Assembly (NCBI GenBank): GCA_030440445.1
Contig: CP098528.1
Location: forward strand, 2,294,001 to 2,358,000
Length of the DNA stretch: 64,000 bases
Direction: 5' to 3'
Origin: Halomonas sp. KG2
GTDB lineage: Bacteria; Pseudomonadota; Gammaproteobacteria; Pseudomonadales; Halomonadaceae
The translations under genes were made by a program, and so were the position numbers. Shown here one piece after another: positions 38,943 through 49,615 of this stretch (position 1 is the first letter of the stretch; each line of letters opens with the position of its first letter). The notes under the pieces were generated by a model. It did not search any database. It was not told where the DNA came from and saw only the letters and a list, made by a program, of their open reading frames with translations.

Positions 38943-41633
38943 TTAAGGCACAGCATCATCATACTGATACAGTCGCTCGTCGTAGCCATCCGCCGTCGCA
39001 TTAATATTACTCATGCCTGACGGCGTGTAGCTTTGCGCTATCACGTACTCAACCCGACCAAACAGCAAATGGGGCGGCTCTTTTGTTGGATCAACAACGG
39101 GCACCGGGTCGTCACCCATTAACGCAATTACGTGATAGTCGCTCTCCCCTCGCGTGACCTCATACGCTTTTGACGACTCACCCTCTGGATTGCGCCAGTA
39201 AATAACATGCTGCTGGATGCCGCCCCAGTTAAGCGCCTCATTTACCAGCATATGTACGCCATCATCAGCTACCTGAACATGCTCTATCAGCGCTGATTTC
39301 GCCCTGTTGGGGATCGGCCCCACTACTGGCAGGTAATCGCCTATGTTGCTGTTTAGCAAGTCCGTCGTAGTGCCCCACGTGTACCCTTTGCGCACATACA
39401 AGTGACGCATTAAGCGGCGCATGCCGTGCCGCCACGCCCGTGTTTTGTCTCTCACGCCCTCAACGCGAATGGTCTCTACCCGCGTCGGCGGGTCTTCGGA
39501 AACGCGGCACTCTACCGTTTCGACAACGCCCGTGATAGCGCTCTCATACTCAACGTCAACCGCGTCGTAGTCGTCCGGCATGACTGCCCGAATGGTTTTT
39601 GTCAGCAGGGCATCAGCGCGCATGTTCTGCGGGCTGTACATGTGACCCAGATCAGTACGCGGCTCATCGCGTACTGGGGTTAGCACCTCGTCCCACGTTA
39701 ATTGGGTCCATATTGCTGCTAGAGCACGCTCCATTACCGCTTTTACGGTGTCATCGCTATTGTTGTTATAGTCGTATGCATCGCCCCTCAGCGCAGTTAT
39801 ATCGTCTATACGCTGCATGGCCTCCATGTTGATCTCGTCGTCTGAGATCCCGGACTGATTCGCCGCATTACGAACAAAATCAATCGCTGAGCGGGTCGGC
39901 CCTACGGTGCCATCCATGCGTTTGAGTATCGCCGTGGGCACGCACGTAATGCGGTTTTCGCTCTGCGATGCTATCGCGTCACTGCCAACAATCGTCATTG
40001 CTAGCACAGTAATGTCATCGTACTGCGTCGGGGACTCAGCGAGCCGTGAGCTGAGCTGCGTCCAGTGCATTTCATCCATACTTTGAATGTCTGTTAGCTC
40101 CGGTTCTGATCTGCGTAAGCGGCACTCCACGGCCATGGGCTGAGGCAGCTCAACATCAATCGTAAAACCTAGCTGATCCCGCGTCCCTTCCTCCATCTCG
40201 TATGGCACCGAAACCCACTCGCCTGCACCGATCTCGCGCCACTCAAGTTCGACGCTCCGCTTACGCCATCGCACATAATCAGTCTCTGCTTTGCCGAGGC
40301 CGCGCGGCATTAGCACAATCGCCTGTAAGCGGTTGATCAGCGTGCCGGATTTTTGCGCATTGAATGGGCCTAGCCATTGACCTTCAGAATAGATGTCATC
40401 AACTCGCACGCGCCAGTTGTTGTGATAGCGTGCGTTTGTCCATCCCTGCCATGCCGTGTCTAGGTTGCCGTCTGCTAGTAACTTTTCGACCATGATCGAA
40501 TCTGCAGTGGTAGTAACGATTCGATAGCGCGCGCCGAGTCTATCGATAGACACCAAATAAGTGCCGCCCGTTGGGCTGGTCACAGGTGATAGATCGGGAT
40601 AGCTAAGCGTTAACTCTGTCGAACTCACGCTGTGCACTATGTATTCACCTGCTAACACGCTGTCTGTCATTACAATGCTGTCGCCTACAGACAGCCCTAG
40701 ATCGCTAAAACTACCGTTGTAAATAGCGCGCACATCCGGCGATGTTGGCGATGATGCTACTATCTGCCTCTGTATAGAGATGTTTAGCAGTAGGTCCTGA
40801 GCCCAGTCCGTCGGTATGTCAGCATCAGCAGGCACGGTAATGGTGTCGTCGCTAACATCTATATAAGACGCCGTTAGTTCTGTCGTTATATCGACTGTGC
40901 TTTTGAGCTTTAACCCCGCCTGACCGTTGCCCGCTGCGCCAACTTCGGGGGCGGTGTACCACAGCTCGTGCGCACGATGCGTGCTTATATCCTCACCGGG
41001 CATAAACGCCTGCCAGTTGACGTCAGTACCAAGCGCGTTGATCGGAGTTTCACCAATGCGTATTTGGGATGAAGGCAGTAGGCACGGCCCCCACGTGACG
41101 CAAAGCAGGATGTCCACCGCTTTAGTACGCGGGTCGATAAAGTACGTGTGGGGAGGAGCCAGGTAGTACGGCGCCAACTTCACTTGCCCAGCGATTTGGT
41201 TGATAACCCCGTTAAGGCGCGGGCGGTTAATCGTCGTGTTGGGGTCGTTGATTTGCGAGCCTTGATCAATGCCGCCGTTAGCGTTGGGCGTTGGGATCGA
41301 CGGCATTAACCAGCTGAATACACTGCTAAATAGATCAACGACGGCGCTAAAAATCGAGCCAATAGCACGCCGCTGAGGGTTTGCATAGATATGCACGACG
41401 AGCACGCTATCGAGCATCACCCCTGCATAATCAGACGGGGGCACAACCTCCCCGCGCTGACCTTCTAGCTCAATTTCCCACGGCGTAAAATCAGGATTTT
41501 CGGCATACGCGGGCAGCGCATCCGCTAGAAAGTCATATAGCGAGCCACTATCAACGGTTTTTGTGCGTATGGGCTGCGTGGGCACGCAATTTAGCTCGCG
41601 TATCAGCGACGGATATAGGTGGATCTCGCTCAC
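38943..41633 (-). CDS. J: Host specificity protein J (TipJ-type tail tip protein)
   Basis: 896 residues. Central tail-tip protein that contacts the host receptor and starts DNA injection. The N-terminal 80 residues resemble a ubiquitin-like I-type segment. Hydrophobic membrane-like and tail-assembly regions follow (near residues 90-115), then fibronectin-like and tip domains rich in paired Arg/Trp motifs. It overlaps the K gene by 4 bp and is last in the late operon. Lambda J is longer (1132), so the C-terminal receptor-binding part is short here. Identity rests on size, position and domain style. Confidence 0.82.
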   Translation of the reverse strand: MSEIHLYPSLIRELNCVPTQPIRTKTVDSGSLYDFLADALPAYAENPDFTPWEIELEGQRGEVVPPSDYAGVMLDSVLVVHIYANPQRRAIGSIFSAVVDLFSSVFSWLMPSIPTPNANGGIDQGSQINDPNTTINRPRLNGVINQIAGQVKLAPYYLAPPHTYFIDPRTKAVDILLCVTWGPCLLPSSQIRIGETPINALGTDVNWQAFMPGEDISTHRAHELWYTAPEVGAAGNGQAGLKLKSTVDITTELTASYIDVSDDTITVPADADIPTDWAQDLLLNISIQRQIVASSPTSPDVRAIYNGSFSDLGLSVGDSIVMTDSVLAGEYIVHSVSSTELTLSYPDLSPVTSPTGGTYLVSIDRLGARYRIVTTTADSIMVEKLLADGNLDTAWQGWTNARYHNNWRVRVDDIYSEGQWLGPFNAQKSGTLINRLQAIVLMPRGLGKAETDYVRWRKRSVELEWREIGAGEWVSVPYEMEEGTRDQLGFTIDVELPQPMAVECRLRRSEPELTDIQSMDEMHWTQLSSRLAESPTQYDDITVLAMTIVGSDAIASQSENRITCVPTAILKRMDGTVGPTRSAIDFVRNAANQSGISDDEINMEAMQRIDDITALRGDAYDYNNNSDDTVKAVMERALAAIWTQLTWDEVLTPVRDEPRTDLGHMYSPQNMRADALLTKTIRAVMPDDYDAVDVEYESAITGVVETVECRVSEDPPTRVETIRVEGVRDKTRAWRHGMRRLMRHLYVRKGYTWGTTTDLLNSNIGDYLPVVGPIPNRAKSALIEHVQVADDGVHMLVNEALNWGGIQQHVIYWRNPEGESSKAYEVTRGESDYHVIALMGDDPVPVVDPTKEPPHLLFGRVEYVIAQSYTPSGMSNINATADGYDERLYQYDDAVP

Positions 41634-42025
41634 GTAAAATACTCCACGGTTGTAAATTTGCAGGCGAAAGAGCGCACAGACTGCCAGCGTACGCCCGCAT
41701 CAACAGTGCACTCCAGCACGCCCAGAAGACCGTTTAGCGGGACGACAACGCCACAATGCAACGCCAACTCTCCCGTCCAGCACAGCACCATGGCGCCCGC
41801 CTGCACGCCGCACGGCTGTAGCCCCTGCCGCACCTCGCGCAGCGCGACATTTACCCGCCGGGGGTTGTCAGTGGGTACGCCCGCGTAGGTGGGCAGTGTG
41901 GGCAATCCGTACTGCTCTGCACGCACCGCTCGCACTAACCCATAGCAATCAAACATACGGATGCCGCCCACGCGCTCACCCCGCCCGCCGCCTTTATAGC
42001 GGGCACTCCGGTACTTATCGAGCAT
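41630..42025 (-). CDS. NlpC/P60-like tail protein (lambda K position)
   Basis: 131 residues. The catalytic Cys lies in FDCYGLVRAVRAEQYGLP and the catalytic His in ALHCGVVV, followed by an Asn/Asp-type position, as in NlpC/P60 peptidases. In lambda-like tails this enzyme trims peptidoglycan during entry or assembly. The frame is open to 42169, but that would overlap the upstream gene by 134 bp. The start at 42025 gives a normal beginning (MLDKYRSARYKGG). It is coupled to J by a 4-bp overlap. Confidence 0.82.
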   Translation of the reverse strand: MLDKYRSARYKGGGRGERVGGIRMFDCYGLVRAVRAEQYGLPTLPTYAGVPTDNPRRVNVALREVRQGLQPCGVQAGAMVLCWTGELALHCGVVVPLNGLLGVLECTVDAGVRWQSVRSFACKFTTVEYFT

Positions 42026-42035
42026 AAAAAAATCC

Positions 42036-42533
42036 TTACGTGAACAACGCCACGCCGGGGTATTTTTGGGCTGTGAAGCGGCCCAGCAAAAAGCGCCGGA
42101 ACAGCAGGTCACGGTGACGGCAGCGCACCTGTAGAGTGCCATCCGGCTGGAACACTGGCTCATCAACAATCATGCGCAGCGGGCGCCGCGCCGGGGCAGA
42201 GAGATCGTTAGAGACGTACATGCGCAGCGTGAGATAGATAATCGCGTTAGCGTCTAGCGCCATGTCGACTAACTCCTCTGCATCTGCGTTTACGCCACCC
42301 AGCGCAAACCCTAGATTTTGCTGACCGCTGTCGTTGCGTGCAGGCAGTGCGAGATCCAACGCAGATCCTAGATAGTGGTGCTGCTGGCCATCCTCATGCC
42401 CCAACAACAGATCATCCCAGCCAGGTATATTGCGGATAGCCGATGGCCACGGCGCACACGTCAGCTCTAGCGCGGGGATACGATAAATCGTAGGGTCGTG
42501 GCCGCTGAGTAGCTGTGCGAGTACGTCATTCAT
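42036..42533 (-). CDS. DUF1833-like tail protein (lambda L position)
   Basis: 165 residues. The region ALELTCAPWPSAIRNIPG near the start, the ELVDMALDANAIIYLTLR core and the final LRMIVDEPVFQPDGTLQVRC fit DUF1833 tail proteins, which occupy the place of lambda gpL before the NlpC gene. It probably forms part of the tail tip below the tape measure. The start ATG overlaps the stop of the small gene upstream (ATGA). Confidence 0.75.
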   Translation of the reverse strand: MNDVLAQLLSGHDPTIYRIPALELTCAPWPSAIRNIPGWDDLLLGHEDGQQHHYLGSALDLALPARNDSGQQNLGFALGGVNADAEELVDMALDANAIIYLTLRMYVSNDLSAPARRPLRMIVDEPVFQPDGTLQVRCRHRDLLFRRFLLGRFTAQKYPGVALFT

Positions 42534-42685
42534 TCGTGCATCACCGTCAGCCGCGCATCATGAGCAACTAATGCGCTGCCCCAGATCGCACGTGGGATTA
42601 AAAGCCGACCTGTATAAACAAACAACCCCGCTTGCGCGGGGTCGTGTCCTTGCTTTACGAGCCACTGATTAATAGTGATTTCCAT
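42530..42685 (-). CDS. 51-residue protein coupled to DUF1833 tail gene
   Basis: A short complete frame, starting MEITINQWLV and ending RLTVMHE. It has an AAAGGTG ribosome site directly upstream of the ATG, and its TGA stop overlaps the next ATG in an ATGA arrangement. Such coupling is typical of real genes. I do not recognise the protein. The position between the peptidase gene and DUF1833 makes it a small tail or assembly factor by inference only. Confidence 0.6.
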   Translation of the reverse strand: MEITINQWLVKQGHDPAQAGLFVYTGRLLIPRAIWGSALVAHDARLTVMHE

Positions 42686-42706: not shown

Positions 42707-42729
42707 CAAAAAAACCGCTCAATGGCGGT
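42707..42729 (-). terminator. Terminator after the S11 peptidase gene
   Basis: On the minus strand ACCGC-CATTGA-GCGGT is followed by seven T residues and GTGCCTGA. It lies about 20 bp after the stop of the large gene and just upstream of the 51-residue gene. Its downstream flank matches that of the terminator at 45609. Confidence 0.75.
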
Positions 42730-42749: not shown

Positions 42750-45590
42750 CTAGTAATAGGTCTGCTCTACGTAATCCATTACAAGTTTTAACTGCTCGTA
42801 GCGATCTGGATCAGTCGTACTGCCTACGATTGTGAAAGCGACAATATCCCCCCCAGGCATCTCTGCTAGTAGCGTCAATGACTGTCCCGTGATTCCGGTG
42901 GTTCCGGTCTTTGCAGCAAGCACGTTGTGGAGTCTGTTAGCGTTGAATGAATTGAATTCAATCGACGTCACGTAATCGATAGTCCGTGGTTCTGGACCGT
43001 CAACGATAGTTGCAGTGTGGCGCGACTGCCTCATGATGCTCATGAGCCGTTGGCTAGAGTTGACTAGACACATCGCACGACATACATCGAGCGAGCAGAC
43101 CTGAGTGCCTTCTAGCGTACCGGCTATAAAGCCATCGAACTGGGGCCTGACCATTCCTAAATCACGGCCTATCCTTTCCATTTCCCGGTAGCCACGAAAG
43201 TCAGCTGACTCACCGTCTTGCACGCCTTCTGTTTCTTGGATTATCTGTCCAACCCTGCGCCCTACTGCAGTAGAGCAGGCGTTATTGGATGGTATCAGCA
43301 TTAATGAAACGGCGTCCTGCACCGACATAACATCCCCGACTTGTAGACCCGCACCTTCTACATCAATAGGTGCGGCAAGTTCGGCATTGAAATCAAGCAC
43401 CCATTGATCGGCAATCAGCGCCGTAAAAACTTTTGTCATAGACGCAATGTTCTGTCGAGCATAAGGGTTTTGCTCGAAAAGGATAGCTCTGTCTTTAACA
43501 CGCATGGCGCAAACAGATGTCGCCTGCAGCACCGGCTTTTCTAACTTGCGGTGAACCACCAGGGGTTTTCGGATCGGCTCAGCAGCCCATTTTTCGAGCT
43601 GCATGCGCTCGTCATCACTGACGATATGGTCGGTGAAGCACATTCTCCCGAAAGCTACACCTCCCGCGTCAAAAGAGGCGCCTTTAAATAAGTCTGTCCG
43701 ACGGGAACGCGTCAGCCCCGAAGGCATAGTGAAAGTGTCGACAAGCAACCCGTTACACCAGAACTCGGATTTTTCTGGCGCTTCCTTAAGCACGAGGCTA
43801 AAAACACCCCAAGCGTCTTGGGGTGCGTTCGCCGCAAGGGGATCGCCCGTACCTGAAGCACCGTCCACAACACCATCAATAGCGATACCCAAGCGTCCAG
43901 GGCGGGACAGCCAGTTGCCGTTACTGTCGCGTATCGCGTTTGCGTTGATGCGCAAGCGACTGCCCGATTCGGGATCATCTTCACCCAGGCCGCCGTGCAC
44001 CAGGGAGCGCAGCGTACTGAAAGCGCTGTCCGCATACGTCGCGAACACCATTGTCCCGGGCCCATACGTCACCCCGCCGCCAACGGTCATGCGGACGTTC
44101 TCGTCGACCCCGATGGACGTGATGCACGGATAGCCTTTAATGACTGACCGAACCGGCTTACTGAAGATACCGCCTAAAGCCTCTAGCGGGCGCGCCGAGA
44201 TGCTGTCGTTTATTGACTCGACGGTATTATTGCCGCTGAGGTGGACGCTGTTGTCGTCGACGGGGTCATAGACGTTAACATTTGCAGCGTTGCGTAATAG
44301 CTTAGCAGGTAGGCTACCAATCGACGGTCCGTGATATTCGCTACTAATGTGAGGCGTGGCGAAAAGCTTAAGGACCGCAATAATGCCCGTTGTACCAGTT
44401 AGTCGCAGAAATGGGCGTGCATAGGTTGCCCCCGCCGGCATATCGAAACGATGGCTACGAACAACATTGTCAGCCATCGCTTGGAGTGTGCCGCTGACTG
44501 CAAAACTAAGACCTACAGCCTCACTGATGTAGTTTCGATCTTGATCAAACCACGCCACCGCAACTTCTATATTGCCATCTGCTGGCGGCTCGAACTGCAA
44601 TATAGAAGCGCTGTAATTAATGTCGTAGAGAAACTCACCCCGCTTTGAGACGGGAATTAGATTAGCAAGCCCCAAACAACTACGGGAGGTAGCCGCAATA
44701 ATCGACAATCGCTGCCCAAGGCTGCCTGACTGTGCCTGCACTGAACTAGCACTTCTTGGGAATGCAGCATGGACGTCGAAAACATAATTCGCAGGATTAT
44801 TACCCACATATCCTTTATATTCAGCGCCCGCAGACTCTCTAATAGCTATCGACTCGGTTATGTCAGTTATGGTCAGCTCAGACCCCCAGAACCTCCCAGT
44901 CGTCGAATCAGTTCCAATATAGGGCAGCATATAAACAGCGCCAGAAGGAAATTCGATGTCTCCTACTTCATTTTGCACCGTAAAACGAAAACGTTGCGAG
45001 TCTGCAGAAAGCGGGCCTCTGTAATACTCAGTAGATGGAGTTTCGGAAAGTCTCAACTTATCTTTATCAAACCAAGCAATACCTATAAAAAAATCATCAT
45101 TTAGCTCACCAGAAGAAACCCCCGATAAAACCCTGATCTCAAATGCCAGACTGGAGCGCACGCTCGTTAACTTGCGAATAGCAAGTATATTGGGCGCTTG
45201 AATGGAATATGCGCTCCCTGTCACCGCGTTAGACCTGAGAAATTCAAAACTCCCCGAGTACGTTAGCGGTGGACGCTGACTAGAATCACCGTTGGCTAGG
45301 GTTGAGGTATAAGCCAAAGGGTTATCTGCAATACGATCTAAGACTTCGTTACTTATCGCGCTAAGCCACGCCTGAGTAATATCCTCGCCACCACCCACAA
45401 TCGCGTTAGCTGCTTCCTGAAGCTGCGTTAACAACCAAAGCGTTGGCGACTCTTCGCCAAATCGGTTGATCCACTTGCTCAGCTCTTTCGTATTCACAGC
45501 TATATCGAGATTTTTAGTATTGATGTCTCGAATTAATGGGTGAGAGCTGCCCAGCGGTTCAGACGCGGGGTCAAATGGGGGTGTCGACAT
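42750..45590 (-). CDS. Large tail-module protein with C-terminal S11 (D-Ala-D-Ala carboxypeptidase-like) domain
   Basis: 946 residues. The start MSTPPFDPASEPLG has a GGAG site 8 bp upstream. Residues 1-60 look like a tail-attachment segment. The middle (about 80-460) has two repeated beta-rich stretches, each with AVAWFDQDRNYIS- or IAWFDKDKLRLS-type motifs. Residues about 470-680 resemble a LamG/concanavalin-like domain. The final 250 form a penicillin-binding-type serine peptidase with all three motifs: Ser717-M-T-Lys720, Ser768-N-N770 and Lys894-T-G. It would cut or trim peptidoglycan stem peptides. Lambda has no counterpart at this position. Confidence 0.8.
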   Translation of the reverse strand: MSTPPFDPASEPLGSSHPLIRDINTKNLDIAVNTKELSKWINRFGEESPTLWLLTQLQEAANAIVGGGEDITQAWLSAISNEVLDRIADNPLAYTSTLANGDSSQRPPLTYSGSFEFLRSNAVTGSAYSIQAPNILAIRKLTSVRSSLAFEIRVLSGVSSGELNDDFFIGIAWFDKDKLRLSETPSTEYYRGPLSADSQRFRFTVQNEVGDIEFPSGAVYMLPYIGTDSTTGRFWGSELTITDITESIAIRESAGAEYKGYVGNNPANYVFDVHAAFPRSASSVQAQSGSLGQRLSIIAATSRSCLGLANLIPVSKRGEFLYDINYSASILQFEPPADGNIEVAVAWFDQDRNYISEAVGLSFAVSGTLQAMADNVVRSHRFDMPAGATYARPFLRLTGTTGIIAVLKLFATPHISSEYHGPSIGSLPAKLLRNAANVNVYDPVDDNSVHLSGNNTVESINDSISARPLEALGGIFSKPVRSVIKGYPCITSIGVDENVRMTVGGGVTYGPGTMVFATYADSAFSTLRSLVHGGLGEDDPESGSRLRINANAIRDSNGNWLSRPGRLGIAIDGVVDGASGTGDPLAANAPQDAWGVFSLVLKEAPEKSEFWCNGLLVDTFTMPSGLTRSRRTDLFKGASFDAGGVAFGRMCFTDHIVSDDERMQLEKWAAEPIRKPLVVHRKLEKPVLQATSVCAMRVKDRAILFEQNPYARQNIASMTKVFTALIADQWVLDFNAELAAPIDVEGAGLQVGDVMSVQDAVSLMLIPSNNACSTAVGRRVGQIIQETEGVQDGESADFRGYREMERIGRDLGMVRPQFDGFIAGTLEGTQVCSLDVCRAMCLVNSSQRLMSIMRQSRHTATIVDGPEPRTIDYVTSIEFNSFNANRLHNVLAAKTGTTGITGQSLTLLAEMPGGDIVAFTIVGSTTDPDRYEQLKLVMDYVEQTYY

Positions 45591-45608
45591 AAATAGATCT
45601 CCAGGCAC

Positions 45609-45635
45609 AAAAAAAGCCCGCCGTGCGGGCTTTGG
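45609..45635 (-). terminator. Terminator upstream of the S11 peptidase gene
   Basis: A perfect 9-bp stem AAAGCCCGC/GCGGGCTTT (45613-45621 with 45625-45633), a 3-base loop, and T residues continuing on the minus strand. GTGCCTGGA follows. It separates the M-position gene from the peptidase gene inside the late operon. Confidence 0.88.
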
Positions 45636-45659: not shown

Positions 45660-46112
45660 CTAGGCTTTCGGCCAGTGCTTGTTCATGGTTCTATCAAACA
45701 CATCGCTATAAAGGATCTCGTCGGGGTATTGCGTATCTAGCTCGCTAATGGTCTGCCGCTTGAGGATTTTCACCGGCGCGGTGACGATCCATAGCCCGCC
45801 CTTGGAGCGATGCGAGTACATGCGCATTTTCATCTCAAGATCTCTATGAATCCCTAAACTGGTCTTCATCGGCCCGCGAAACGGCAGCACCCCGTCATGT
45901 ATCTCCCAGCGAAACCAGCCTTCGAACAGCTGGAATTCTGGGTACTCAAACAGAAATCTTACCGTTAGATTCGTGGGCACCGTGCCCATTTGGCGCTCAT
46001 CTCGGGTACGTCCGTTGCCCAGTGGGGTGCGTAGAATGGGGTCGTGGTGCTGCGCATCAAAAGAGTCATCCGGCGGTGGTAGCTGGGGTGGGTAAACTGG
46101 CATTTCTGGCAT
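45660..46112 (-). CDS. Phage tail protein (lambda M position)
   Basis: 150 residues, beginning with a Pro-rich stretch (MPEMPVYPPQLPPPDDSF). It lies directly after the tape measure gene, with a 1-bp overlap, where lambda has gpM. The sequence has no motif I can name; the aromatic-rich core FLFEYPEFQLFEGWFRWEI is typical of tail-tip baseplate folds. Role as a minor tail protein is inferred from place. Confidence 0.65.
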   Translation of the reverse strand: MPEMPVYPPQLPPPDDSFDAQHHDPILRTPLGNGRTRDERQMGTVPTNLTVRFLFEYPEFQLFEGWFRWEIHDGVLPFRGPMKTSLGIHRDLEMKMRMYSHRSKGGLWIVTAPVKILKRQTISELDTQYPDEILYSDVFDRTMNKHWPKA

Positions 46113-49100
46113 TACCTAGCCCCTCGTTTCATGCCGTAGGTATTAGCTACCTGCTCGGCGTAGGAATTGCTGGCACCGCTGGCGAGGTCTTCGCGCATCG
46201 TCTGCAGTACGCGTACTTTAAAGCGGTCATCGCTCACGCGCTCCACTGTCGCAGTGGCCTGCACGGGCTGGCCCTGGTTGATGACTTCGACATCAATTTG
46301 CACGTTAGAGCGGCCACCGTTTGAGTCATTCGCGGCGCGTTTTTCACTAGCTAAGAAACGATCTAGCTCGTCCGCTTGCTGGCTCATCATCACACGCTGG
46401 CCTTGGTCCAGCAGCCAGGTGCCCTCTTTGGGTATGCGATCGACGCCCGCGTGCGACATGCCTGTAGGCTGTATCGCGCTTAACATCGACGACAATGCGC
46501 CCGTTTCCAGCACGGTTTTTGCAACGATAGGAATGTTCGCTGGAAAAGGCGCGCTTGCCCACGCTTGTGCAATCGCTTGGTAGCTAGACACCATGGTGCT
46601 AGCCATCGAGTACGCTTTATGGGCAGCAAACAGGCCGCGATAAATTGACGACTGCTCACCCGCAAACACCTTAGCCAACCCAGCAAGATCGCCATACATA
46701 CTAGCGTTGCCCGCCAAACGGGCTTGGCGGCTTTGCCTTTCGTACTGCTCTACCGTTTCAATGTTTCGCCGTTCTAGCTCAGCCAGCGCCGCTTGAGCCT
46801 GTTGCTTTACGCCGTACTCTTCGTTGGTAAACTCTCGCAGCAGTTCCAGCCGTTGCTGGTACTGCTCGCGATAGCGCTCCATCTCCCGATCTAAGCGATC
46901 GGCTTCACCAAACGGGCCGGAAACTGACGCGTCTAGCGATGTTGGCACCTGCAGGCCACGCGTGGCAACGTTGCCCAGCTCGCGTTCTAGCTGTTTTGCA
47001 GCGAGGTTGCCGAGGCCAGGATCTAGCATCTCAATCGCCATCGAGTCGCGCTGCAGCGTTTTCAGGCGCTCAAGATCGGGCACGTAGGTATTAATCAGCG
47101 ATGAGCGACGCTCCAGCAGCGAAAGTTCTTCACGCAACTGCAGCAGGTTGTCTGCCTGCGTTTGATTGAGTTCACGAAGATTGCCGCGCTCAAGTTCATA
47201 GCGCAGCTTGGCAACTTCACCAATTTCACCATGCAGGGCTATATCACGTTGCAGTGTTTCCAGTTGACCATCATAAAGCCCCTGCACACGCTCAATTTCT
47301 CGCTGCCGTTCGCGCAGTGCTGCCGCTGCCATTTGCTCGCCCTTGCGGGCTGCTGCGTTGGCTTCCTGCTCTGCTTTGCGGCGGCGCTCTACTGATGCGC
47401 GGTACTCATCCTGAAAGATGGCCCCTTGCACAATGGACTCGGCCAGCTCTGGCGGGATGCCGCCGTCCTGCGCAGAAATCCAGCGCCGCGCTTGGCCTTC
47501 ATTGCTCGGGTCCATCATCTGGGCAATGGATTCATTCATCCGCTTGAGATAATCGTTCGCCGCTGATCGGTTGCCTTCCATCGCCCTTGTCTGGGCGTCG
47601 ATGCTGCTGGTAGCGTCATCTAATGCGGGCTTTAGATCCCTTTGCCTGCCAATCAAGCCCTGAAGCGTTTGGTTTGCGTCGTCATATTCGACCTCCAGAT
47701 TGCGAATAACGCTGGCATGAGATTCGGTGGCCACTAACGGGAATTGTTGTTCAAAAAGCTCTGCAAGCGTTCCGGCCTCGCGGATACCCTCGCTAACCTC
47801 TTTCAGCGCCGTCCGCATGACCTGCAGACCTTCACGCTGGTTAGGCCCGCCCACAGATTGCGACATACGGTCTATTTGCTGCAGTGCGCGCGCCATGACT
47901 TGCTGCTGCTGGTTAATCTCGTCCTCAAGCCCCTGCATCGTCAAATTCCGCTGTGATAATGCTAAGCCATCAAACGCCTCAGTGGCCTGTTCCGTCTCGG
48001 TGCGTAAATCAACAATGCTATCGCGGATTTCTTTAGCGGTGCGGCTCGCCTCGCTCATATTGGTTGATAAGCGATACACCGCATAAGCGCCCAGCATAAG
48101 AACACCAGCAGGGCCACCCATTAATGCCATGGCCCCATGGGCACCGCGTACTGCTAACGCCATCGACGTATGAGCAAGCGACGATGCACGGGCTGCTGCC
48201 GTTTGCGACAACGTGGCGGCGGTGGCCGTAGCAGTGGCGCGCTGATACTCAATCTTAGAGAGCGTGGCTAAGCGGGTTGCAGATGCTTCCCCTGCCACTG
48301 CGGTATTAAGCGCTAATTGTGCAGCACGCTGCTGTACTGTTAAGGCTTGCTCAGTGCGGCGTATTTCGGCTAACCGGGTTAACGAGCGCTGACGCCCTAC
48401 ATCACTAATCTGCGCTTGCAAACGCTGAGTTTCTAGAGCGCGCTCTGCTGACATCATTTGCTGAGTAGATTGCACTCGCTGCAAATCCTGCCGCGCAGCC
48501 TCAAGGGTATGCCGGGCACTCTGCTGAGCGCGCTGTGCTTCCTGCACTGCCTGGGCACGCTCTGCCGCTTCACGGCGCTGTGCTTGGGTCACGGCAGCAC
48601 GGTCTTGTTCCATACGGCGCAGGGTTTCTGCTGCCGCCATGCGCTCACTTTCAGCACGGCGGCCAACTGCAGCGGTGTACGACCCCAACGCTTGCACGCC
48701 ACGGCCCGCTATAATAACGCCCGCCGCCATGCCTACTTCCGCCAGGGTTTCGATGTTATCGGCAGCTAATTCAATGCCCGCCGCTAACACGCCGGTGGCT
48801 GAATGCGCTTCGTTCGCTTGGCCGATGTACTGCATCCATGCGTTATTAAACACCACCCTGGCATCTTCAACCGAGGTGGGCATGCGCTCCAGTTCCTCGA
48901 CCATGGTCGCCACCTGACCGGTCAAGGCGGGCATCACAACGTTTGCCGTCAACTTCCCGGCAGTAGCCATTTCGTTTAGCTCACGCGTGGTTACCCCCAG
49001 CCCTTCCGCCAGCGCTTGCTGCAAGCGCGGCGCGTTCTGAATCACCGCGTTGTAGGCGTCGCCCTGCAACTTGCCGGCGATCATCGCCTTGCCGAACTGG

Positions 49101-49615
49101 TCGATCAGTGAGGTCGAGTCTTGCGTTTTGGTACCGCTAATAACCATCCCCGCCGAAAGTGCTTCGGTTAGATCCAGCACATCCCGCGTGGCAAAACCAA
49201 CTTCTTTCAGAGGCCGCACGGTATTGACGAACAGCTCTGAAATATCCATCAGTGGCTTGTAGGTGTTGCGGGCGGTCTGCATCATTCGCTGCTGCACCAT
49301 GTCGTACTCGAGCGTCGATTCAGTCACCAGCCGAATTCGGGACGCCATTTGCGAGTACTCATCAGCGGTACCAATAACATTGCGCGCGGTGAACATACTC
49401 GCCAACGCCACACCAGCGCTTAGTGCTGTGTTCTTTAGAAACGCAATTTGATGGCTAGTGTCTTGAACGTCTTCACCGAATTTCTGAGAGCGCTGGCCGC
49501 TATTATCCAGCTCTTTGCCCAAACCCGTGACTTCATCACGCATTTGACGCATGACGCGAATGCCTCCGCTGGCGTCGCCATTAATTACAAACCGGGTCTG
49601 CATTTCGCGCGACAT
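46112..49615 (-). CDS. H: Tape measure protein (lambda H-like)
   Basis: 1167 residues, the longest phage frame. It sets tail length and is ejected ahead of the DNA. The N-terminal part has the tape-measure domain (GKAMIAGKLQGDAYNAVIQN, QALAEGLGVTTRELNEMA). Long Gln/Ala/Arg-rich coiled coils follow (about 325-460 and 570-620). A hydrophobic stretch around AMALMGGPAGVLMLGAYAVY may cross the host membrane. At roughly 3 residues per 4.5 angstroms this implies a tail near 170 nm, an estimate only. A GAGG ribosome site precedes the ATG. Confidence 0.93.
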   Translation of the reverse strand: MSREMQTRFVINGDASGGIRVMRQMRDEVTGLGKELDNSGQRSQKFGEDVQDTSHQIAFLKNTALSAGVALASMFTARNVIGTADEYSQMASRIRLVTESTLEYDMVQQRMMQTARNTYKPLMDISELFVNTVRPLKEVGFATRDVLDLTEALSAGMVISGTKTQDSTSLIDQFGKAMIAGKLQGDAYNAVIQNAPRLQQALAEGLGVTTRELNEMATAGKLTANVVMPALTGQVATMVEELERMPTSVEDARVVFNNAWMQYIGQANEAHSATGVLAAGIELAADNIETLAEVGMAAGVIIAGRGVQALGSYTAAVGRRAESERMAAAETLRRMEQDRAAVTQAQRREAAERAQAVQEAQRAQQSARHTLEAARQDLQRVQSTQQMMSAERALETQRLQAQISDVGRQRSLTRLAEIRRTEQALTVQQRAAQLALNTAVAGEASATRLATLSKIEYQRATATATAATLSQTAAARASSLAHTSMALAVRGAHGAMALMGGPAGVLMLGAYAVYRLSTNMSEASRTAKEIRDSIVDLRTETEQATEAFDGLALSQRNLTMQGLEDEINQQQQVMARALQQIDRMSQSVGGPNQREGLQVMRTALKEVSEGIREAGTLAELFEQQFPLVATESHASVIRNLEVEYDDANQTLQGLIGRQRDLKPALDDATSSIDAQTRAMEGNRSAANDYLKRMNESIAQMMDPSNEGQARRWISAQDGGIPPELAESIVQGAIFQDEYRASVERRRKAEQEANAAARKGEQMAAAALRERQREIERVQGLYDGQLETLQRDIALHGEIGEVAKLRYELERGNLRELNQTQADNLLQLREELSLLERRSSLINTYVPDLERLKTLQRDSMAIEMLDPGLGNLAAKQLERELGNVATRGLQVPTSLDASVSGPFGEADRLDREMERYREQYQQRLELLREFTNEEYGVKQQAQAALAELERRNIETVEQYERQSRQARLAGNASMYGDLAGLAKVFAGEQSSIYRGLFAAHKAYSMASTMVSSYQAIAQAWASAPFPANIPIVAKTVLETGALSSMLSAIQPTGMSHAGVDRIPKEGTWLLDQGQRVMMSQQADELDRFLASEKRAANDSNGGRSNVQIDVEVINQGQPVQATATVERVSDDRFKVRVLQTMREDLASGASNSYAEQVANTYGMKRGAR

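What the first reader, a model, noticed from the sequence alone, without database searches (positions are those of the whole stretch)
42750..45590. Complete penicillin-binding-type (S11) peptidase built into a phage tail module
Seen: a 946-residue protein between the M and L positions of a lambda-type tail operon ends in a domain with SMTK (717-720), SNN (768-770) and KTG (894-896). These are the three active-site motifs of D-Ala-D-Ala carboxypeptidases. A LamG-like part precedes it. Known: S11 enzymes cleave peptidoglycan stem peptides; tail enzymes are usually NlpC/P60, lysozyme or transglycosylase types, and this phage also has NlpC/P60 at K. Inference: a virion-borne DD-peptidase may trim host wall cross-links at entry, or modify the wall of the lysogen.
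Basis: partly seen in the sequence, partly recalled or inferred. Interest (0 to 1): 0.72.

Follow-up and report, generated by a model that had tools for sequence, protein, structure and literature searches.

The report
Phage tail fibre with DD-peptidase domain
A dormant virus in a Halomonas-type bacterium carries what looks like a tail-fibre protein ending in a complete penicillin-binding-type peptidase, and relatives of this enzyme in other viruses, some with its two halves in swapped order, suggest an overlooked way for viruses to process the surface of their host.

Summary
The gene (42750-45590, minus strand, 946 aa) ends in an S11-fold domain with SMTK 717, SNN 768 and KTG 894; its model matches Streptomyces K15 DD-transpeptidase (Foldseek E 1.3e-14). 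The 'LamG-like' part was not supported. The protein is best read as a tail fibre: residues 6-51 are 65% identical to the start of a fibre in the same slot of a Halomonas colorata prophage, which ends in a weakly SASA-esterase-like part; a Synechococcus phage has a BNR-type end there. It has no evident signal peptide and no room for its own promoter, so wall modification of the lysogen is unlikely. A second prophage in this genome encodes a similar 841-aa protein. The domain belongs to a distinct S11 branch seen in tail-module proteins of Erythrobacter, Ruegeria and Microcystis phages and, circularly permuted (halves swapped; model pTM 0.89), in staphylococcal-type phages. Two cellular relatives are fused to, or lie beside, a Mur ligase and a glycosidase-like protein, hinting at a peptide other than ordinary murein. 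Likeliest role: processing of a host-surface substrate at adsorption. Activity, substrate and presence in virions are untested. New variant of a known kind.

The parts
42750..45590 (-). Gene of the 946-aa tail-fibre-like protein with C-terminal S11 domain
45423..45590 (-). Residues 1-56: fibre anchor, residues 6-51 65% identical to the G205 slot protein
44274..45422 (-). Residues 57-439: middle part; residues 69-261 similar to the second prophage protein; two jelly-roll-like repeats by eye only
43542..44273 (-). Residues 440-683: claimed LamG-like part, not supported; residues 567-683 similar to the second prophage protein
42753..43541 (-). Residues 684-946: S11-fold domain
43431..43442 (-). 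SMTK 717-720 (SxxK, predicted nucleophile Ser717)
43281..43289 (-). SNN 768-770 (SxN)
42984..42998 (-). GPEPR 865-869: GxxxR motif, invariant G and R in 8 of 8 rows of A3, a mark of the tail-type branch
42903..42911 (-). KTG 894-896
45613..45633 (-). Terminator-like hairpin upstream, followed by TTTTTTTGTGCCTGGAGA before the ATG
42714..42729 (-). Terminator-like hairpin downstream of the gene
46112..49615 (-). Tape measure protein
45660..46112 (-). M-position protein, phrog_384 virion structural protein
42036..42533 (-). L-position protein, DUF1833 / phrog_396 minor tail protein
41630..42169 (-). K-position protein, weak NlpC/P60 match, phrog_329
38943..41633 (-). J-position tail protein, phrog_469

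Best explanation
The gene encodes an enzyme-tipped tail fibre of a siphophage-like prophage of Halomonas kin. Its first ~50 residues anchor it to the tail, in a slot between the M- and L-position genes; the middle part is shaft and binding modules; the last 260 residues are a serine enzyme of the S11 fold with an intact SxxK/SxN/KTG centre. Made with the late genes, it is carried on the virion and, when the fibre touches the cell, forms an acyl-enzyme on Ser717 and cuts a D-amino-acid-type amide or ester bond of a substrate on the host surface, as enzyme ends of fibres in the same slot are presumed to do with theirs. Shown by computation: motifs, fold, slot, shared anchor, late-gene junction. 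Inferred: presence in the virion, catalysis, and a surface substrate rather than murein.
For: Motifs; S11 fold; profile of 8 relatives aligned with K15 DD-transpeptidase over its length. Anchor shared with a slot protein that is a phrog_4201 tail fibre, E 2.2e-79. Same gene order in G205 and Synechococcus phage Ssp-JY37 with other ends in the slot, SASA-like (weak, E 0.016) and BNR_2 (E 1.1e-7); those two share their N-terminal part. Same hairpin-TTTTTTTGTGCC[CT]GGAGA junction in all three. Second prophage of this genome with a similar 841-aa last tail-module protein that shares a collar with the Synechococcus fibre (60% over residues 46-104). S11 in tail-module proteins of other phages.
Against: No experiment. 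The anchor match to the proven fibre family is 46 residues; the window protein itself hits no tail PHROG. Two phage relatives have lost the Asn of SxN (Microcystis phage SGS, Tedan SGG), so the domain need not always be catalytic. The junction element is not fibre-specific. LamG part unsupported.
Confidence: 0.55

Rival explanations
1. Entry enzyme for murein: the S11 domain trims stem peptides or cross-links of peptidoglycan while the tail crosses the envelope, beside the NlpC/P60-like K protein.
For: Nearest solved structures are DD-peptidases of murein; phages of a wall-exposed host, Staphylococcus, carry the domain too.
Against: A fibre of a phage of a Gram-negative host is expected outside the outer membrane (general knowledge); a candidate murein enzyme already sits at K; slot ends in two related phages are not murein enzymes.
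Confidence: 0.25
2. Binding module: the S11-type domain has become, or acts as, a receptor-binding domain without catalysis.
For: Loss of Asn in SxN in 2 of the phage proteins aligned; fibre ends often only bind (general knowledge).
Against: All three motifs are intact in the window, the second prophage, the Erythrobacter phage, L026 and the permuted proteins.
Confidence: 0.15
3. Lysogenic-conversion cargo: an inserted gene expressed in the lysogen that alters its own wall.
For: Terminator-like hairpins flank the gene; GC3 of its N-terminal and S11 parts is 0.44 and 0.51 against 0.60-0.65 for four neighbours.
Against: No signal peptide by eye; no promoter-like site between upstream hairpin and ATG; fibre-type N-terminus; the same junction precedes tape-measure-like, endolysin-like and fibre genes elsewhere (by eye).
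Confidence: 0.05

Closest known systems
Peptidase S11: Streptomyces K15 DD-transpeptidase (1es4, 1skf), Bacillus DacB (3mfd), PBP5/PBP7 types
   Same: Fold and SxxK/SxN/KTG in order
   Different: End of a phage tail-type protein, no signal peptide by eye; longer loop before the EMN helix and a GxxxR motif where ordinary S11 have NxN; separate branch, bootstrap 97
Erythrobacter phages ZS04 (gene 37) and vB_EliS-R6L (gp77), 755 aa
   Same: Tail-type S11 with GxxxR in the last gene of the tail module; annotated 'virion structural protein' and 'D-alanyl-D-alanine carboxypeptidase'
   Different: S11 in the middle, Laminin_G_3 after it; other anchor; after the J-position gene
Circularly permuted S11 of staphylococcal-type phages (UHP46, L031, L032, L033, L084)
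   Same: Same branch, all three motifs and GxxxR; on a BppU_N-type protein in L031
   Different: KTG half first, SxxK/SxN half last
Enzyme-ended fibres of the same slot (G205 prophage, Synechococcus phage Ssp-JY37)
   Same: Slot, junction; anchor (G205)
   Different: Ends are SASA-like (weak) and BNR_2

Membership tests
Peptidase S11 | SxxK, SxN, KTG in order and spacing | tested here: met
Peptidase S11 | Penicillin-binding / DD-peptidase fold | tested here: met
   predicted model against PDB, E 1.3e-14
Peptidase S11 | Pfam PF00768 curated cut-off | tested here: not met
   27.0 against 27.6 bits, E 3.8e-6; the second prophage protein passes with 66.4 bits. I therefore call the window domain S11-type by fold and motifs; the family models alone would not file it
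Peptidase S11 | DD-carboxypeptidase/endopeptidase activity, penicillin binding | not testable with these tools
   needs the assay named in the next steps
Phage tail fibre | Fibre-type N-terminal anchor in the fibre slot | tested here: met
   65% over residues 6-51 with the G205 slot protein; same gene order
Phage tail fibre | Match of the protein itself to a tail-fibre family model | tested here: not met
   only phrog_5304 'peptidase' and one chance-level match
Phage tail fibre | Presence in virions | not testable with these tools
   mass spectrometry needed
LamG-containing protein | LamG fold at residues 440-683 | tested here: inconclusive
   no Pfam hit, no profile match, low-confidence model
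Circular permutation of S11 (relatives, not the window) | Both halves homologous, in swapped order, folding to one domain | tested here: met
   crossed alignments, confident model; non-sequential superposition could not be run

The most novel reading that the evidence does not exclude
The window belongs to a tail-type S11 lineage spread over phages of Pseudomonadota, Cyanobacteria and Staphylococcus, one branch of which is circularly permuted, and whose proper substrate is not murein but a surface peptide made by Mur-ligase systems: glycosidase-like protein + Mur ligase + S11, fused in one protein in G237 of the window's genus, and three neighbouring genes with a permuted S11 on a Staphylococcus saprophyticus plasmid. 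The window's own host has the glycosidase-like-Mur ligase protein. The fibre would be a depolymerase or receptor-processing enzyme for that unknown peptide.
Probability: 0.22. Interest if true: 0.82.

Novelty: new variant of a known kind. Interest (0 to 1): 0.62.

Why it matters
Enzyme ends of tail fibres and spikes decide which surface polymers a phage can use or get through. An S11 end lies outside the usual set (lyases, glycosidases, SGNH esterases; general knowledge), is open to penicillin chemistry and so directly testable, and its natural circular permutants are an unusual rearrangement of the penicillin-binding fold. The Mur-ligase neighbours point to a surface peptide that could be looked for.

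Tried and rejected
LamG assignment: no support. IMG/VR scans with the single window protein or the second prophage protein: no relatives. 390 order genomes with profile A2: 378 have a match at E 1e-10; the two own loci score 424 and 385 bits but are rows of the profile, so match by construction; the other listed rows score 100.2 bits or less and lie in frames of 246-671 aa; the listing was cut, and I saw no further tail-type protein in it. I first took the hairpin-TTTTTTTGTGCCYGGAGA element as a mark of the fibre slot; one search shows it before many kinds of genes, so it speaks for a late gene, not for a fibre. Alignment A7 for the permuted model misplaced strands and was replaced by A11. BFVD gave no meaningful match for the permuted model. 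Of the many human-faecal phage records hit two were opened; both look like cell-wall S11 enzymes with an N-terminal hydrophobic stretch; the rest were not opened. Of 23 IMG/VR loci (L026, L031, L032, L033) have S11 in an ORF over 600 aa; the other 19 lie in ORFs of 251-485 aa and were set aside as stand-alone enzymes. An anchor search of genome contigs returned only the G205 genome itself (1 of 75 candidate stretches), so the window's anchor is rare or fast-changing.

Full report
What is there. The ORF lies on the minus strand, 42750-45608; the ATG at 45590 gives 946 aa. Pfam sees Peptidase_S11 at E 3.8e-6, 0.6 bits under the cut-off, best over residues 684-775. A model of residues 440-946 from 25 sequences has ten-residue blocks of pLDDT mostly 79-97 over the S11 part (lowest blocks 61, 65, 69) and below 50 over most of what precedes it. 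Foldseek puts the model with Streptomyces K15 DD-transpeptidase (E 1.3e-14, TM 0.82 by target length), a DD-endopeptidase, Bacillus DacB and PBP5/6. A profile of 8 relatives, the window among them, aligns with K15 over most of its length, motif on motif. So the domain is S11 by fold and motifs. The LamG claim failed each test made. Coordinates of the models could not be read, so active-site distances were not measured.

Where it sits. The prophage has small and large terminase, portal, head protease, major head protein, endolysin and Rz-like genes, then a tape measure, an M-position protein, the S11 gene, and L-, K- and J-position genes. A prophage there has the same order, with a 749-aa protein in the slot and an extra 254-aa gene after it. 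Its start is 65% identical to the window's over 46 residues; it matches phrog_4201, tail fiber protein, at E 2.2e-79 over residues 57-749; its end is a weak SASA match, E 0.016, below cut-off. Synechococcus phage Ssp-JY37 has a like order; its slot protein shares its N-terminal part with the G205 fibre and ends in BNR_2, E 1.1e-7. The three genes share the junction hairpin-TTTTTTTGTGCC[CT]GGAGA. In 275 family genomes the 18-mer occurs in 4, once each, with none for the reversed control: the window slot, the G205 slot, and before ORFs of 62 and 1114 aa in two other genomes. Of the 126 matches looked at (those 120 stretches, one with two, plus five known places), 114 of the 125 with enough upstream sequence have a hairpin ending at the T-run; by eye the genes that follow include endolysins, tape measures and fibres. 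Seven long fibre-like proteins of these were scanned: one has GDSL, one SASA, one YadA_head, one a match below cut-off, three none. So the S11 gene is wired as a late gene, in a slot whose far end differs between phages.

How common. In 275 family genomes, 5 have a match to the window protein at E 1e-6: own genome (window and a second prophage), G205 (N-terminus only), G258 and G267 (stand-alone ORFs of 297 and 294 aa) and G237 (1365-aa frame). The second prophage's protein has 841 aa, follows a 1656-aa tape-measure-like protein (by eye) and two others, is similar to the window over residues 69-261 and 567-941, and passes Pfam S11 with 66.4 bits. Of 50,697 phage records the window protein matches 12 and the second protein 57. 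Opened and translated: Erythrobacter phages ZS04 and R6L (755 aa each, S11 with Laminin_G_3 after it; only ZS04 was scanned), Microcystis phage Mwe-JY26 (524 aa, S11 then Laminin_G_3), Ruegeria phage Tedan (512 aa, S11 first). IMG/VR prophage L026 has S11 then Laminin_G_3 in 742 aa.

The permutation. In staphylococcal phage UHP46 (ZCSS1 gives the same hit but was not opened) and IMG/VR contigs L031, L032, L033 and L084 the half with KTG comes first and the half with SxxK and SxN last, ending the protein. Pairwise BLASTP shows it: window domain residues 97-255 match L032 11-164, and 32-105 match L032 219-296; the second prophage domain and L031 likewise, at 38% and 50% identity. A profile of 5 permuted rows hits Bacillus DacB in two crossed stretches. 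The model of L031's domain, from 10 rows of which 6 are half-domains, has mean pLDDT 87.7 and pTM 0.89; Foldseek, which keeps sequence order, finds only part-length S11 matches (TM 0.28-0.38 by query) and nothing at E 0.001, as a permuted fold would give. Hosts of the IMG/VR contigs were not established. A tree of 33 chosen domains (LG+G4, 243 columns) parts 13 tail-type domains, three of them stand-alone or cellular (G258, G237, L087), from 20 ordinary S11 domains (ultrafast bootstrap 97) and groups the four permuted ones (98); the window's own place is unsettled and branches are long.

Cellular relatives. G237 has one 1364-aa protein: a glycosidase-like part (weak Pfam GH88, E 0.0076), a Mur ligase (E 1.3e-29) and a tail-type S11. 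A Staphylococcus saprophyticus plasmid has the three as neighbouring genes: 451 aa (41% identical to the G237 part over 462 columns; weak GH76, E 0.0057), a 685-aa Mur ligase and a 257-aa permuted S11. A Staphylococcus simulans plasmid has the permuted S11 without an annotated Mur ligase within about 6 kb. 36 of 275 family genomes have the glycosidase-like part, among them the window's own (a 1075-aa ORF), where none of the six S11 matches lies near it. The substrate of this branch may thus be a Mur-ligase product; this is a lead from two cases, with one case against, and not a test.

How it most likely works. Made late and held by its N-terminus, the fibre presents the S11 domain at its far end; Ser717 attacks a D-amino-acid-type carbonyl, with Lys720, SNN and KTG assisting as in the family (recalled mechanism), and the acyl-enzyme is hydrolysed. 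This would process or clear a receptor polymer. Murein is the chief rival substrate. That FmtA, another penicillin-binding-fold enzyme, removes D-Ala from staphylococcal teichoic acids is recalled; no call supports it, but it would fit the permuted enzymes.

Literature. Ten searches of the held library listed no paper whose listing describes an S11 or DD-carboxypeptidase end on a tail fibre, or a permuted S11. Only passages were read of PMC6509535 (an endolysin), PMC5463345 (gene table of R6L, naming ORF 77 a D-alanyl-D-alanine carboxypeptidase; the term mass spectrometry does not occur), PMC5694896, PMC10453261, PMC12419801 and PMC9294509 (the term is in its reference list). The library lacks most subscription papers and preprints, so this is weak evidence of novelty, and records already name such proteins carboxypeptidases or serine hydrolases.

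Noticed in passing
G237 = L019:8663-12757 (-); L218:6022-10558; own genome L229:7191-10418 (+): A glycosidase-like protein joined or next to a Mur ligase, with a tail-type S11 fused (G237) or beside it in permuted form (S. saprophyticus plasmid); function unknown. 36 of 275 family genomes have the glycosidase-like part.
   Followed up: partly
   Followed up: partly
L007:6098-8659 (-), about 2.87 Mb of G000:C1: 853-aa fusion of a DacA-like S11 domain, a MurF-like ligase and an acylphosphatase-like part (by eye), beside a Ddl-like and ATP-grasp-like genes.
   Followed up: no
L217:8037-8879; L087:7854-8699: Stand-alone tail-type S11 enzymes of 280-281 aa on a 34.5-kb Atlantibacter hermannii plasmid (beyond the annotated ORF start) and behind the tail genes of a Mu-like contig.
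   Followed up: partly
window 42530-42685 (-): Small ORF of about 50 codons between the hairpin after the S11 gene and the L-position gene, holding another terminator-like hairpin (42622-42645).
   Followed up: no
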